Shown piece by piece: positions 269 to 62,285 of a stretch of DNA of 64,000 nt; position 1 is the stretch's first letter; each line of letters begins with the position of its first letter. The notes beneath the pieces are model-generated. The model was not told where the DNA came from. It saw only the letters and a list, made by a program, of their open reading frames with translations, and did not search any database. A program made the position numbers and the translations under genes. Source of the DNA: Gulbenkiania mobilis (lineage in GTDB: Bacteria; Pseudomonadota; Gammaproteobacteria; Burkholderiales; Chromobacteriaceae); the NCBI GenBank assembly GCA_004346645.1, contig SMDA01000002.1, positions 392,898 to 456,897 on the forward strand. The letters are read 5' to 3'.

Positions 269-1527
269 TTGCCCGGCGCCTCTATGGCGCAGTCTGGCCC
301 CTGCTGTTGCCGCTGGTCAGGCGCTACCTGCGCAAGCGGGCCCGCAAGGCGCCGGCCTATCTGGAACACTGGGACGAACGCTTCGGCCAACCTTTTGCCG
401 CCCGCCATCGCGGAGCGATCTGGATTCATGCGGTATCGGTAGGTGAGACGCGCGCTGCACTGCCTCTGGTGCGTGCCCTGCAGGCCCGCTGGCCGGGGGT
501 GCCGCTGCTGATTACCCAGATGACCCCCACCGGTCGTGCCACCGCTGCCGAACTCTACCCCGATGCCGAGATTCGCTACCTTCCCTACGACACGCCTGCC
601 GCTGTGGCGCGTTTTCTATCCGACCATGCTCCGCGTTTCGGGGTGCTGATGGAAACCGAACTGTGGCCCAACCTGATCGCGGCAGCGGCCTGCAGCGGGG
701 TGCCACTGTTTCTGGCCAACGCGCGCTTGTCGGAGAAGTCGCTGGCGGGATACCGGCGCATCGGTGCGCTGATCCGTCCCGCCCTCGCACAGTTGACGGG
801 CGTGGCTGCGCAAACCGCTGAGGACGCCCGGCGCCTGACCCAACTTGGGGCCCGCGAGGTGCACGTGTGCGGCAACACCAAGTTCGATTTCACGCCCCCC
901 CTCGACAAACTGGCATTGGGAGAGGACTTCCGACAGCGGATCGGGCCGCGCCCGGTGCTGGTGTGTGCCAGCACACGCGAAGGCGAGGAAGCTTTGCTCT
1001 TCGCTGCCTGGAGCGCTGCGCGGGCACGGGTGGGCAGGGTCTTGCTGGTGGTGGTGCCGCGCCATCCGGAACGCTTTGACAGCGTGGCGGGCTTGGCCGA
1101 AGGCGCCGGCCTGGCGTGCGCGCGCCGCAGCGAAGAAGGCCCGGTGCCGCCCGATGCTGCAGTATGGCTGGGGGACAGCATGGGTGAGCTGTTCGGCTAT
1201 TACGCGGCGGCCGATGTGGCCTTCGTGGGCGGCAGCCTGCTGCCTCTGGGGGGACAGAACCTGATCGAGCCGGCCAGCATCGGGCGGCCGGTGCTGTTCG
1301 GCCCCCACATGTTCAACTTTGCCGAAGCCAGCCGTCTTGCACTCGAGGCCGGCGCGGCACGGCAGGTGCCGGATGCCGGGGCGCTGGTGGACGAAGCGCT
1401 GGCCCTTCTGGCGGATGCACCCGCCAGGCAGGCGATGCACGACGCCGCCCTGGCGTTCACCGCGGCCCACCGGGGCGCCAGCGACCGCATCGTGGAACTG
1501 ATCGCCGGCCGTCTTCTCCAAGCCTGA
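265..1527 (+). CDS. waaA: 3-deoxy-D-manno-octulosonic acid (Kdo) transferase
   Basis: Transfers Kdo from CMP-Kdo to lipid IVA in the inner membrane. The protein has 420 residues, the usual family length. A hydrophobic N-terminal anchor (GAVWPLLLPLV) is followed by VSVGETRAA near residue 60, where family members carry the catalytic Glu, then METELWPNL near 128. The C-terminal nucleotide-sugar half has FVGGSLLPLGGQN and EPASIGRPVLFGP near 318-345. It is translationally coupled to the upstream heptosyltransferase. A copy of the GGTTGGCCGAAG repeat (reverse orientation) lies in codons 39-43, read as F-G-Q-P. Confidence 0.95.
   Translation: MIARRLYGAVWPLLLPLVRRYLRKRARKAPAYLEHWDERFGQPFAARHRGAIWIHAVSVGETRAALPLVRALQARWPGVPLLITQMTPTGRATAAELYPDAEIRYLPYDTPAAVARFLSDHAPRFGVLMETELWPNLIAAAACSGVPLFLANARLSEKSLAGYRRIGALIRPALAQLTGVAAQTAEDARRLTQLGAREVHVCGNTKFDFTPPLDKLALGEDFRQRIGPRPVLVCASTREGEEALLFAAWSAARARVGRVLLVVVPRHPERFDSVAGLAEGAGLACARRSEEGPVPPDAAVWLGDSMGELFGYYAAADVAFVGGSLLPLGGQNLIEPASIGRPVLFGPHMFNFAEASRLALEAGAARQVPDAGALVDEALALLADAPARQAMHDAALAFTAAHRGASDRIVELIAGRLLQA
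381..392 (-). repeat. Uptake-sequence-like 12-mer
   Basis: CTTCGGCCAACC on the plus strand, preceded by G. It lies inside the N-terminal part of waaA. Confidence 0.8.
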
Positions 1528-1560
1528 CGGGCAATCGCCCGGTCCGACAAGGAGCCCGCC

Positions 1561-1779
1561 ATGCCGGTCAATCACAAGAAACTGCTGCGCAGCAAGTGGA
1601 CGGCCGTGGCCCCCACCAGCCGTGAGAAACACTTCATGGTGGTAAGGGTTACGCGCGATCAGGAGGATCCGCAGAAAGTGCTGACGGTGGATCTGGAGGC
1701 CGTGCTCACGCGCCGCCGCTGGACACTGCCGTGGCGCGATCTGGGCGATTCGGCCTCATGGCGCGCCGGCTGGCTCTAG
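1561..1779 (+). CDS. TIGR02450-type Trp-rich small protein
   Basis: A 72-residue basic protein with five tryptophans (SKWTAVAP, RRRWTLPWRDL, SWRAGWL), matching in length and wording the TIGR02450 Trp-rich family of proteobacteria. The family function is unknown. The start follows an AAGGAG ribosome site 7 bp upstream. It sits 33 bp after waaA on the same strand and may be the last gene of that operon. No signal peptide or membrane segment is visible. Confidence 0.8.
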   Translation: MPVNHKKLLRSKWTAVAPTSREKHFMVVRVTRDQEDPQKVLTVDLEAVLTRRRWTLPWRDLGDSASWRAGWL

Positions 1780-1783
1780 GCTG

Positions 1784-2998
1784 CTAGAGAAAGCGCAGCG
1801 GGTCCACCTTCCACTTTTCCGGCGCTTCGTGGCGCACGATGCTGTCACCGCCGCCAAAACCCAGCGGCCGCGACAGGTCTACCACTTCGGGCGGGATGTG
1901 GCTGTTGCTGCGCAGACTGAAGAACACCTTCACCTTGGGCGCGATCAGGCTCTTCTCGTTCTGTTCCACCACCACGCCCAGCCGGCCGCTTTCCAGCCGT
2001 ACCAGTGTTCCGACCGGATAGATGCCGGTGGCGCGCATGAAAGCCTGCACCAAGGCCGGGTTGAAGTGATGCCGCGACCATTCATACAGCTTGCGCAGCG
2101 CGTCGGTGGGCGCCATGCCCTGGTGATAGCAGCGGTCCGAGGTGAGGGCGTCGTACACGTCGACGATCGCGGCCATCTGGCCAAGTTCGGAAATCTGGTC
2201 GCCTTTCAGTCCGAGCGGATAGCCGCTGCCATCGTGCCGCTCATGGTGCTGCGCGGCCACCTCGATGGCCATGGCGGTGATGCCGGGGGTGGCCTCCAGG
2301 ATACGGCGGCTTTCCACAACGTGGCATTTCATCACCGCGAACTCCTGCTCGGTCAGCCGGCCTGGCTTGTTGAGGATGGCATCGTCAATGCGCATCTTGC
2401 CGATATCGTGCAGCATGCCTCCCAGACCAGCGTGGAAGATGCGTTCGGCGCCCATCTGCCGGGCGTTGCAGAAGCTCACCATCAGGGCGCCCACGCTCAC
2501 CGAGTGCAGAAAGGTGTAGTCGTCCTTGTCCTTGATGCGGCACAGCGACAGCAGTGCACCGGGGTTGGCCAGCAGCGAGCCGGTCATGCGCTCCACCACC
2601 GGCTCCACCTGAGCCACCTGCACTTGGCGCCCCAGCCGCACGTCGTTCATCACACTGTGCATGATGCGGCTGGCTTCGTGGTGCACTTGCCGCGCCCGCC
2701 CGATTTCCTCCCCGGCCTCGCGTCGGGCCGCTGCAGGCGGTGCTTCGGTCGCAAAGGCGCGGATCTCGCTGTCGAGCTGGCATTCAACCTCCTGGACGGT
2801 GGGCGCATGCACCAGATCCAATCCGCGGCTGGTATCAATGTAGATTTCGTAGATGCCGGCATCGGCAATGCGGCGGATGTCGCTTTCGTCTTCCAGCAGG
2901 AAGCGGTTGCGCAGAAAGGGATGACTCATCCAGTCGCAGTTGAGGTCGTGGATGTACATGCCGACCCTCAGGTCGGAAATCTCGATGCGCTTGATCAT
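1784..2998 (-). CDS. HD-GYP domain cyclic-di-GMP phosphodiesterase with DUF3391 N-terminus
   Basis: Likely hydrolyses c-di-GMP in the cytoplasm. The N-terminal part (IEISDLRVGMYIHDLNCDW) resembles DUF3391. The catalytic region holds LHDIGKM near residue 195 and HHERHDGSGYP near 251-261, so both the HD metal pair and the GYP loop are intact. The ATG at 2998 is chosen because GGAG lies 7 bp before it; a GTG at 3031 would add 11 residues but has no ribosome site. The gene converges on the Trp-rich gene with only 4 bp between them. No membrane segment is seen, so the input signal is unknown. Confidence 0.9.
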   Translation of the reverse strand: MIKRIEISDLRVGMYIHDLNCDWMSHPFLRNRFLLEDESDIRRIADAGIYEIYIDTSRGLDLVHAPTVQEVECQLDSEIRAFATEAPPAAARREAGEEIGRARQVHHEASRIMHSVMNDVRLGRQVQVAQVEPVVERMTGSLLANPGALLSLCRIKDKDDYTFLHSVSVGALMVSFCNARQMGAERIFHAGLGGMLHDIGKMRIDDAILNKPGRLTEQEFAVMKCHVVESRRILEATPGITAMAIEVAAQHHERHDGSGYPLGLKGDQISELGQMAAIVDVYDALTSDRCYHQGMAPTDALRKLYEWSRHHFNPALVQAFMRATGIYPVGTLVRLESGRLGVVVEQNEKSLIAPKVKVFFSLRSNSHIPPEVVDLSRPLGFGGGDSIVRHEAPEKWKVDPLRFL

Positions 2999-3074
2999 GC
3001 CTGGCTCCGGTCTGCGCCGGTGGAACAACACTGCAGAAATTCTAACGGCGCGGACCAGGTGCTGTCGCGGCCGT

Positions 3075-3085
3075 TTCGGCCAACC
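3075..3085 (-). repeat. Uptake-sequence-like 11-mer, intergenic
   Basis: TTCGGCCAACC between the HD-GYP gene and prfA. The twelfth base is T instead of C, so it is one base short of the full 12-mer. Confidence 0.7.
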
Positions 3086-61492: not shown

Positions 61493-61551
61493 TGAACAGT
61501 CATCCTTGGCCATCGGATCGCATAGTGTTGCAACCCGCCCTCGGCGTTCAG

Positions 61552-61563
61552 GGTTGGCCGAAG
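61552..61563 (+). repeat. Uptake-sequence-like 12-mer, intergenic, full 16-bp consensus
   Basis: CAGGGTTGGCCGAAGC (61550-61565) in the tonB-hslV divergent region. Confidence 0.88.
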
Positions 61564-61718
61564 CCTCCCCGTCCCCTTCACCGGCTACTGCAACCGTAAG
61601 CGGCACGCCCGCCACCCTTCCCATGAGTGTGTCCGCGGCTTGCAAAAGCCGGCGTCCGCCTACATATCGGAAAAGCCCGCCGCCTTCGCTGCGGCCGCTC
61701 AATACTAGGACAAGACCC

Positions 61719-62258
61719 ATGCAGCAATTTGACGGAACCACCATTGTGTCGGTACGCCGCGGCAACCGCGTTGCCTTGGGCGGGGACGGTCAGGTCACCT
61801 TGGGTAACGTGGTTATCAAGGCCACTGCCCGCAAGATCCGCCGCCTCTACCACGACCGGGTGCTGGCTGGCTTTGCCGGCGGCACCGCCGATGCCTTCAC
61901 GCTGTTCGAGCGCTTCGAGGCCAAGCTGGAAAAGCACCAGGGACATCTGGTGCGCTCGGCCGTGGAGCTGGCCAAAGACTGGCGCACCGACCGCATGCTG
62001 CGCCGTTTGGAAGCCATGCTGATCGTGGCCGACCTCGAGAACACCCTCATCATCACCGGTAACGGCGACGTACTGGAGCCCGAGCAGGGGATCGCTGCCA
62101 TCGGTTCCGGCGGTTCATTTGCGCAGGCCGCCGCGCGGGCCTTGGTGGAAAACACCGAGCTCGACCCGGCCGATGTGGTGAAGAAAGCGCTCACCATCGC
62201 CGGTGACATCTGCATCTACACCAACCAGAACCATCTGATCGAAAGCCTGGGCGAATAA
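61719..62258 (+). CDS. hslV: ATP-dependent protease subunit HslV
   Basis: 179 residues. After a short propeptide (MQQFDG) comes TTIVSVRRGNRVALGGDGQ; the mature enzyme should begin at a Thr of this TT pair, which is the nucleophile. RRLEAMLIVADLENTLIITGNGDV near 107-130 and GSGGSFAQAAARAL follow. It forms the proteolytic double hexamer capped by HslU. TAGGACAAGACC precedes the ATG. Confidence 0.96.
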   Translation: MQQFDGTTIVSVRRGNRVALGGDGQVTLGNVVIKATARKIRRLYHDRVLAGFAGGTADAFTLFERFEAKLEKHQGHLVRSAVELAKDWRTDRMLRRLEAMLIVADLENTLIITGNGDVLEPEQGIAAIGSGGSFAQAAARALVENTELDPADVVKKALTIAGDICIYTNQNHLIESLGE

Positions 62259-62273
62259 GGCCCGGGCTCCCGG

Positions 62274-62285
62274 GGTTGGCCGAAG
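62274..62285 (+). repeat. Uptake-sequence-like 12-mer, intergenic
   Basis: GGGGTTGGCCGAAGC in the 61-bp gap between hslV and hslU. Confidence 0.87.

What the first reader, a model, noticed from the sequence alone, without database searches (positions are those of the whole stretch)
381..62285. Dispersed GGTTGGCCGAAG repeat: candidate DNA uptake sequence of a new dialect
Seen directly: the 11-mer GGTTGGCCGAA occurs 22 times on the two strands. Plus-strand copies start at 7196, 9572, 10630, 22766, 31925, 41842, 46789, 50666, 52440, 57268, 61552, 62274. Minus-strand copies start at 382, 3075, 21047, 25295, 31737, 39318, 45717, 48903, 51543, 57251. Seventeen extend to the 12-mer GGTTGGCCGAAG, and five are identical over 16 bp (CAGGGTTGGCCGAAGC at 10628, 21045, 39316, 45715, 61550). 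Ten weaker copies keep GTTGGCCGAA (4832, 8875, 14019, 25735, 29906, 38356, 54916, 59488, 59934, 63747). At 64% GC I estimate about 0.05 chance 11-mers. Copies are balanced between strands, about one per 2-3 kb; 10 of 22 are in the small intergenic fraction, and coding copies are read in several frames (SANP, LAEG, FGQP), which argues against protein-driven origin. Known knowledge: Neisseriaceae DUS (GCCGTCTGAA family) and Pasteurellaceae USS show this density and distribution and are read by pilus-linked receptors such as ComP. I know of no described uptake sequence with this core. Uptake function is inference.
Basis: partly seen in the sequence, partly recalled or inferred. Interest (0 to 1): 0.93.

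Follow-up and report, generated by a model that had tools for sequence, protein, structure and literature searches.

The report
New DNA-uptake password with dialects
A ten-letter DNA word occurs 1,245 times, equally on both strands, in this bacterium's genome and is spelled differently from one related lineage to the next; it is likely a 'self' tag by which these bacteria would recognise and take up DNA of their own kind, in a group where an earlier survey found no obvious tag of this sort.

Summary
The 11-mer occurs 23 times in the window (reader: 22), with 0.04 expected. Genome-wide, GTTGGCCGAA occurs 1,245 times, 624/621 on the two strands. [quoted passage not shown] Single-letter variants of its core are at background.

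The word has lineage dialects. Among 61 genomes of the family...GAA is high in 8...GAG in 2 and ...GCA in all 13 of one genus (Vogesella); 38 hold none. Of 386 genomes from other families of the order, none has it in excess. 64 of 203 copies are intergenic (14% by length), some as hairpin pairs. No replication-strand bias was seen.

Best reading: a DNA uptake sequence of Chromobacteriaceae that lacks the CTG core shared by the eight described DUS dialects. Predicted receptor: the minor pilin FimT2, whose DNA-binding-type GRxR tail is present in 9 of 10 GAA/GAG genomes, 0 of 13 GCA genomes and 4 of 34 motif-poor genomes. A ComP-like pilin lies in the same locus. Uptake itself is untested.

The parts
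382..391 (-). GTTGGCCGAA copy (11-mer), coding
3075..3084 (-). GTTGGCCGAA copy (11-mer), intergenic
4832..4841 (-). GTTGGCCGAA copy (10-mer only), coding
5861..5870 (-).
7197..7206 (+). GTTGGCCGAA copy (11-mer), coding
8865..8874 (-). GTTGGCCGAA copy (10-mer only), coding; reader gave 8875
9573..9582 (+). GTTGGCCGAA copy (11-mer), coding
10631..10640 (+). GTTGGCCGAA copy (11-mer, part of a 16-mer), coding
14019..14028 (+). GTTGGCCGAA copy (10-mer only), intergenic
21047..21056 (-). GTTGGCCGAA copy (11-mer, part of a 16-mer), intergenic
22767..22776 (+). GTTGGCCGAA copy (11-mer), coding
25295..25304 (-). GTTGGCCGAA copy (11-mer), intergenic
25735..25744 (-). GTTGGCCGAA copy (10-mer only), coding
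29906..29915 (-). GTTGGCCGAA copy (10-mer only), coding
31737..31746 (-). GTTGGCCGAA copy (11-mer), coding
31926..31935 (+). GTTGGCCGAA copy (11-mer), coding
38356..38365 (+). GTTGGCCGAA copy (10-mer only), coding
39318..39327 (-). GTTGGCCGAA copy (11-mer, part of a 16-mer), intergenic
41843..41852 (+). GTTGGCCGAA copy (11-mer), intergenic
45717..45726 (-). GTTGGCCGAA copy (11-mer, part of a 16-mer), intergenic
46790..46799 (+). GTTGGCCGAA copy (11-mer), coding
48903..48912 (-). GTTGGCCGAA copy (11-mer), coding
50667..50676 (+). GTTGGCCGAA copy (11-mer), coding
51543..51552 (-). GTTGGCCGAA copy (11-mer), coding
52441..52450 (+). GTTGGCCGAA copy (11-mer), at a gene edge
54916..54925 (-). GTTGGCCGAA copy (10-mer only), coding
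57251..57278 (.). inverted pair of copies (57251-57260 minus, 57269-57278 plus), able to form a hairpin, intergenic
59488..59497 (+). GTTGGCCGAA copy (10-mer only), coding
59934..59943 (+). GTTGGCCGAA copy (10-mer only), coding
61553..61562 (+). GTTGGCCGAA copy (11-mer, part of a 16-mer), coding
62275..62284 (+). GTTGGCCGAA copy (11-mer), intergenic
63747..63756 (+). GTTGGCCGAA copy (10-mer only), intergenic

Best explanation
The repeated word AGGTTGGCCGAA (core GTTGGCCGAA) is likely the DNA uptake sequence of this bacterium, one dialect of an uptake-sequence family, predicted for the Chromobacteriaceae, in which the last two core letters are AA, AG or CA by lineage. Predicted mechanism: type IV pili present a minor pilin that binds extracellular DNA carrying the word; retraction brings that DNA in; recombination spreads and repairs copies, which keeps the word frequent and exact (all inferred). 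The favoured receptor is FimT2, a FimT-type minor pilin with an arginine tail, perhaps helped by the ComP-like pilin PilE2 of the same locus (predicted). Shown here: frequency, strand balance, sharp core, dialects, hairpin pairs, restriction to part of one family among the genomes searched, and the association of the FimT2 tail with motif state. Inferred: uptake, binding and receptor identity.
For: Frequency: 1,245 10-mers (624/621), reversed-word control 8; 595 12-mers, control 1. Most over-represented 10-mer in 400 kb (170 vs 3.7 expected). Sharp core: 102 exact 12-mers in 464 kb, while the 27 single-letter variants at positions 3-11 total 12, at background. Dialects: GAA high in 8, GAG in 2, GCA in 13 of 61 family genomes; 386 genomes of other families have at most 223 copies of the four-spelling pattern, against 1,304 or more in the rich family members of that draw. 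Layout as for DUS: 64 of 203 copies intergenic against 14.3% by length, nine inverted pairs; Frye et al. [quoted passage not shown] No G-rich-strand bias (44 with, 40 against; the 84 of 203 copies in stretches of clear skew). Copies outlast drift among Vogesella relatives (24 of 31 kept over four locus pairs against about 8 expected). Receptor: GRxR tail of FimT2 in 9 of 10 GAA/GAG, 0 of 13 GCA, 4 of 34 motif-poor genomes; inside genus g6 the one rich genome has GRHR and its nine poor congeners a Gln in place of the last Arg. The two arginines of GRxR contribute to DNA binding in Legionella FimT (passages). PilE2 matches ComP best among solved structures in sequence and fold. ComEC is in 22 of 22 genomes searched.
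Against: No uptake or binding experiment exists here, and I found no paper showing that these species are competent (listing only). The FimT2/PilE2 locus and ComEC are also in motif-poor genomes, so gene presence does not predict the motif. The FimT2 association is phylogenetically clustered; Paludibacterium has GRAQ with 1,851 copies, and four Chromobacterium have GRxR without the word. FimT2's fold matches are FimU, not FimT, and FimU is said to have the motif only in part (passage). Other pilins were not excluded. The core lacks CTG. Coding copies favour two of six frames. In the 80 kb G001 sample the word ranks below local repeats.
Confidence: 0.85

Rival explanations
1. The word is an uptake sequence, but the receptor is the ComP-like PilE2 or another pilin, not FimT2.
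For: PilE2's three best solved relatives are ComP structures (2nba, 2m3k, 5hz7), its model matches ComP 5hz7 first, and it hits Pfam ComP_DUS. ComP is the DUS receptor of Neisseria (passages).
Against: 21 of 27 PilE2 examined have two cysteines (3 have three, 3 have four), not the four of ComP's two-disulphide region, and the globular part is net acidic in 6 of 8 GAA genomes. Pfam ComP_DUS hits 56 of 61 genomes in and outside the family and scores the other PilE of this genome higher than PilE2 (58.6 vs 53.0 bits). I saw no PilE2 feature that follows motif state, but made no systematic search for one.
Confidence: 0.3
2. The word is a chromosome-maintenance signal (Chi-like recombination site or FtsK-orienting site) bound inside the cell.
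For: Many short exact copies and lineage-specific spellings also occur for such sites (recalled).
Against: Chi and FtsK sites are oriented with replication (recalled); here 44 copies run with and 40 against the G-rich strand, and three relatives give the same. Hairpin pairs, intergenic enrichment and absence from nine congeners in genus g6 do not fit.
Confidence: 0.06
3. The word is a terminator or REP-like intergenic element, or a mobile repeat, without a role in uptake.
For: Nine inverted pairs can form hairpins, some followed by T runs, and one tandem array of five copies exists (L043 17000-17053).
Against: 135 of 203 copies lie fully inside genes and only 13 neighbour pairs lie within 60 bases; the conserved stretch is about 10-12 bases, short for a REP or mobile element.
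Confidence: 0.05

Closest known systems
Neisseriaceae DNA uptake sequence (DUS) and its eight dialects, receptor ComP
   Same: Short word, hundreds to thousands of copies on both strands, one main spelling per lineage, inverted pairs, intergenic enrichment. AGGTTGGCCGAA agrees at 9 of 12 places with AG-simDUS and AG-mucDUS, and the CA spelling repeats the +9 A-to-C change by which king3DUS differs from kingDUS.
   Different: The CTG core at +6 to +8, present in all eight dialects, reads CCG; +5 is G; the AG dialect changes +10, also invariant in DUS. A 9/12 agreement arises by chance in 2-3.5% of trials with free offsets, so common descent is suggestive only. PilE2 of this genome lacks ComP's second disulphide.
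Pasteurellaceae USS, predicted receptor PpdA/ComN
   Same: Uptake word with dialects; the predicted receptor is a FimT-like minor pilin whose C-terminal part is speculated to set the dialect (passages), as proposed here for FimT2. FimT2 of G012 has a weak match, far below the cut-off and over its N-terminal half, to NCBIfam NF007800, prepilin peptidase-dependent protein.
   Different: No GCGG core and no A/T-rich flanks (USS features and recall); a different class of bacteria.
Legionella FimT (DNA-binding minor pilin)
   Same: FimT/FimU-type fold (matches are FimU), GspH domain and the GRxR tail.
   Different: No sequence selectivity is reported for Legionella (passage); here the tail follows an uptake-word dialect. 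FimT2 of this genome has six cysteines, whereas Legionella FimT has no disulphide.

Membership tests
Neisseriaceae DUS | 10-12-mer far above expectation genome-wide | tested here: met
Neisseriaceae DUS | both strands, genic and intergenic, inverted pairs | tested here: met
Neisseriaceae DUS | lineage-specific dialects | tested here: met
   23 of 61 family genomes rich, three spellings
Neisseriaceae DUS | invariant CTG core (+6 to +8) and A at +10 | tested here: not met
   CCG in all three dialects; +10 is G in the AG dialect
Neisseriaceae DUS | raises uptake or transformation | not testable with these tools
   none
Pasteurellaceae USS | GCGG core and A/T-rich flanks | tested here: not met
ComP | ComP fold and Pfam ComP_DUS | tested here: met
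   PilE2; but the Pfam model is not specific to motif-rich genomes
ComP | two C-terminal disulphides (four cysteines) | tested here: not met
   PilE2 of this genome has two cysteines; over 27 examined: 21 two, 3 three, 3 four
ComP | sequence-specific DNA binding | not testable with these tools
   none
FimT | GspH/FimT-type fold | tested here: met
   FimU 4ipu, E 1.4e-8, model of G012; GspH domain
FimT | C-terminal GRxR | tested here: met
   met in this genome and in 9 of 10 GAA/GAG genomes; in 0 of 13 GCA genomes
Chi / FtsK-orienting sites | orientation with replication | tested here: not met
   by G-rich strand, 84 of 203 copies

The most novel reading that the evidence does not exclude
A whole second uptake-sequence family, with CCG in place of the CTG core and at least three dialects, runs through the Chromobacteriaceae and is read by a sequence-specific FimT pilin rather than ComP; loss or rewriting of the FimT2 arginine tail accompanies loss of the word or a change of dialect.
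Probability: 0.42. Interest if true: 0.92.

Novelty: new variant of a known kind. Interest (0 to 1): 0.8.

Why it matters
Frye et al. 2013 found no obvious DUS in five genomes, among them Lutiella nitroferrum 2002, Pseudogulbenkiania sp. NH8B and two Chromobacterium, and placed the origin of the DUS system after the split from C. violaceum. The record Pseudogulbenkiania ferrooxidans 2002 (the same strain by its number; synonymy recalled) holds 1,104 copies of GTTGGCCGAA. If this is an uptake sequence, the system is older, or arose twice, and the CTG core is not universal. Closely related genomes with and without the word, and with three spellings, make receptor-word coevolution directly testable in environmental bacteria. 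It would also say which DNA these bacteria can share.

Tried and rejected
Pfam ComP_DUS as a marker of the system: rejected, since it hits 56 of 61 genomes, motif-poor ones and other families included. ComEC as a marker: present in 22 of 22. FimT2 presence as a marker: found at E below 1e-30 in 57 of 61 family genomes, all but the four of genus g9. Relics of the word in motif-poor genomes: single-mismatch words are at most about twice expectation in the samples of G020, G026, G032, G008 and four g8 loci, no clear relics. Another abundant word in motif-poor genomes: none of comparable strength in 80 kb each of G020, G026, G032 and G008; the other motif-poor genomes were not tested de novo. Rfam: no match in the window. 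An apparent run of plus-strand copies at the end of the list is an effect of the list's cut, since L048 holds a minus copy in that stretch. The pilin comparison used regions picked from cut lists, so not every pilin of every genome was seen. Papers: a text search for six spellings gave 275 papers, of which the 15 listed are unrelated by title and the rest were not seen; no paper holds both 'DNA uptake sequence' and Vogesella; one holds uptake sequence, natural transformation and Chromobacteriaceae, on a Neisseria species (listing only); (listings) showed none on an uptake word of this family. Table S1D of Frye et al., which lists over-represented 10-mers of these genomes, could not be opened here: the word may be printed there.
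Full report
1. The observation. The 11-mer GGTTGGCCGAA occurs 23 times in the window with 0.04 expected; 33 copies of the 10-mer core GTTGGCCGAA are present. In the whole genome (2.87 Mb, 21 contigs) the 12-mer GGTTGGCCGAAG occurs 595 times (290/305) against 1 for the reversed word, and the 10-mer 1,245 times (624/621) against 8, about 430 per Mb. [quoted passage not shown]).

2. Shape. In 464 kb (window plus sample), exact 12-mers number 102. The 27 one-letter variants at positions 3-11 total 12, about what chance gives (the printed expectations sum to about 10), while position 1 is loose, position 2 is G or C, and position 12 is G, A or C. So the recognised word is [G/C]TTGGCCGAA with a weak AG before it and a weak G after it. 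No A/T tract flanks it. AGGTTGGCCGAA is the highest-scoring 12-mer of the 400 kb sample.

3. Layout. With gene calls from a hexamer model written here (376 genes, 85.7% coding), 64 of 203 copies are intergenic, 4 at gene edges and 135 coding. Thirteen neighbouring pairs lie within 60 bases: nine inverted, able to form hairpins (one at 57251/57269 in the window), and four successive spacings of one tandem array of five copies. Copies do not follow the G-rich strand (44 with, 40 against, counting the 84 of 203 copies in stretches with clear skew; three relatives give the same). Coding copies favour two frames (103 of 135), which I read as codon preference.

4. Dialects. De novo counting in 80 kb of each of ten relatives found the same core as top 10-mer in G002, G005 and G009, and with other endings in G012 (GTTGGCCGAG) and G033 (GTTGGCCGCA); in G001 it ranks below a local repeat, and in G020, G026, G032 and G008 it is absent from the top. 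Whole-genome counts in the 61 held genomes of the family: GAA high in 8 (183 to 2,168 copies), GAG high in 2 (1,590 and 1,940), GCA high in all 13 of genus g5 (1,871 to 2,895); the other 38 have at most 92 of any of the three spellings. Genus g6 has one rich genome (G005, 1,368) and nine at background. The low end of the rich group is G018 (183; an 84% complete MAG) and G011 (579, with 165 GAG besides). Over 399 genomes drawn from the order, the 386 outside the family have at most 223 copies of GTTGGCCGMR, and the eight rich family members in that draw 1,304 to 3,107.

5. Names. So GCA is the dialect of the genus that holds Vogesella, and the genus that holds Chromobacterium (19 of 19 genomes) has none. 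The window's own genome may be left out of that search and is not named; Gulbenkiania is my guess from size and G+C (recalled), and it is listed in this family. G026, 4,751,080 bases, is C. violaceum ATCC 12472 by recalled length.

6. Maintenance. In aligned Vogesella-type loci, 24 of 31 copies are kept over four pairs of loci (L153-L167, L152-L168, L151-L186, L166-L226), where 10-mers of the same G+C content predict about 8. I chose these four of the 56 directed pairs so that no locus is used twice; they come from one chromosomal neighbourhood, so sites may be shared. Over all directed pairs it is 156 of 240 (not independent; control 0.20). In JH1-16 and C. oryzisoli, copies of the copy-poor genome are all kept in the copy-rich one (3 of 3, 4 of 4) but not the reverse (3 of 8, 4 of 11). 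In Pseudogulbenkiania, 36 of 42 against 0.70, too similar to be informative.

7. Receptor search. The genome has ten pilin-type hits at E up to 1: a pair of major-type pilins and two minor-pilin loci. G002, with the most GAA copies, has only eight hits, four of them in a cluster I read as type II secretion pseudopilins, so few pilins can be the receptor there. Locus 2 of this genome holds genes that I name FimT2, PilV, PilW, PilX, PilY1 and PilE2. No PilY1 was found there in g3 and g4, and in the six Vogesella-type loci examined only FimT2 and PilE2 were found, side by side; two motif-poor g8 loci look the same. The gene order corresponds to the fimT-pilVWXE locus of Kingella, needed for transformation (passages). 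PilE2 of this genome matches ComP structures best (2nba, 2m3k, 5hz7), the PilE of locus 1 shows no ComP among its matches at E up to 0.01 although Pfam's ComP_DUS model scores it higher than PilE2, and the PilE2 model (mean pLDDT 83.9) finds ComP 5hz7 first. FimT2 (model of G012 from eight sequences, mean pLDDT 77.6) folds like FimU 4ipu; Legionella FimT is not among the 50 rows shown.

8. FimT2 tail and motif state. FimT2 was read for the 57 of 61 genomes that have it at E below 1e-30. A GRxR tail, whose arginines contribute to DNA binding in Legionella FimT (passages), is in 9 of 10 GAA/GAG genomes (the tenth, Paludibacterium, has GRAQ), 0 of 13 GCA genomes (MRIR, GFRQV and other tails), and 4 of 34 motif-poor genomes (all in the Chromobacterium genus). 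Fisher's test of GAA/GAG against motif-poor gives p = 9e-6 but ignores relatedness. A tree built without the tail puts GAG and GCA each on one side of a branch and G005 beside its nine motif-poor congeners (it holds 60 rows, four of them second FimT copies, and leaves out G004). There the same gene reads GRHR in the rich genome and G[KR]xQ in the nine poor ones. This is the cleanest contrast and may rest on one event.

9. Relation to DUS. Section 6 of Frye et al. (read in full) states that all eight dialects keep CTG at +6 to +8 and A at +10, and that five genomes, among them Lutiella nitroferrum 2002, Pseudogulbenkiania sp. NH8B and C. violaceum, have no obvious DUS. A passage puts the origin of the system after the split from C. 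violaceum, in which no ComP was found by BLAST. Aligned end to end, AGGTTGGCCGAA agrees with simDUS and mucDUS at 9 of 12 places, and 10 of its 12 letters occur at the same place in one of the seven dialects compared; the breaks are G at +5 and C at +7. Random genomic words reach 9 of 12 in 3.5% of trials with free offset and strand and 0.2% at a fixed offset; shuffles of the word in 2.2%. So it may be a deep dialect of DUS or a convergent word. I leave this open.

10. Verdict. In the genomic respects tested the word behaves like an uptake sequence, with dialects, in a group reported to lack one. Works like a DUS: strongly supported. Is a DUS in the strict sense: one defining feature (CTG core) is not met. 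Receptor FimT2: about even odds. Uptake: untested.

Noticed in passing
L043:17000-17053 (G000:C1 about 156998-157053): Five GTTGGCCGAA copies in an 11-base head-to-tail array, intergenic.
   Followed up: no
window 7462-10334, minus strand: A sigma-54-type response regulator and a PilS-like sensor kinase side by side, a likely pilSR pair controlling type IV pilin; the kinase gene carries two copies of the word.
   Followed up: partly
G024 (Vogesella urethralis): GTTGGCCGMR totals 2,551 but CA, AA and AG sum to 1,928, so about 620 copies should read GTTGGCCGCG: a possible second spelling.
   Followed up: no
G016, G027 (genus g8): Slight excess of GTTGGCCGAG (92 and 85) over congeners (21-55); a relic or weak use of the word.
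   Followed up: partly
G005, 80 kb sample: A second related word, GTTTGCCGAA, 14 copies against 0.87 expected.
   Followed up: no
L302-L305 (G063, G062, G061, G030): Four motif-poor genomes of g6 carry a second FimT with a GRSK tail that groups with the FimT2 of Paludibacterium.
   Followed up: partly
G008 (genus g9), 80 kb sample: Words TCAGGGTAAA and TGATCGAACT are moderately enriched, perhaps parts of a longer dispersed repeat.
   Followed up: no
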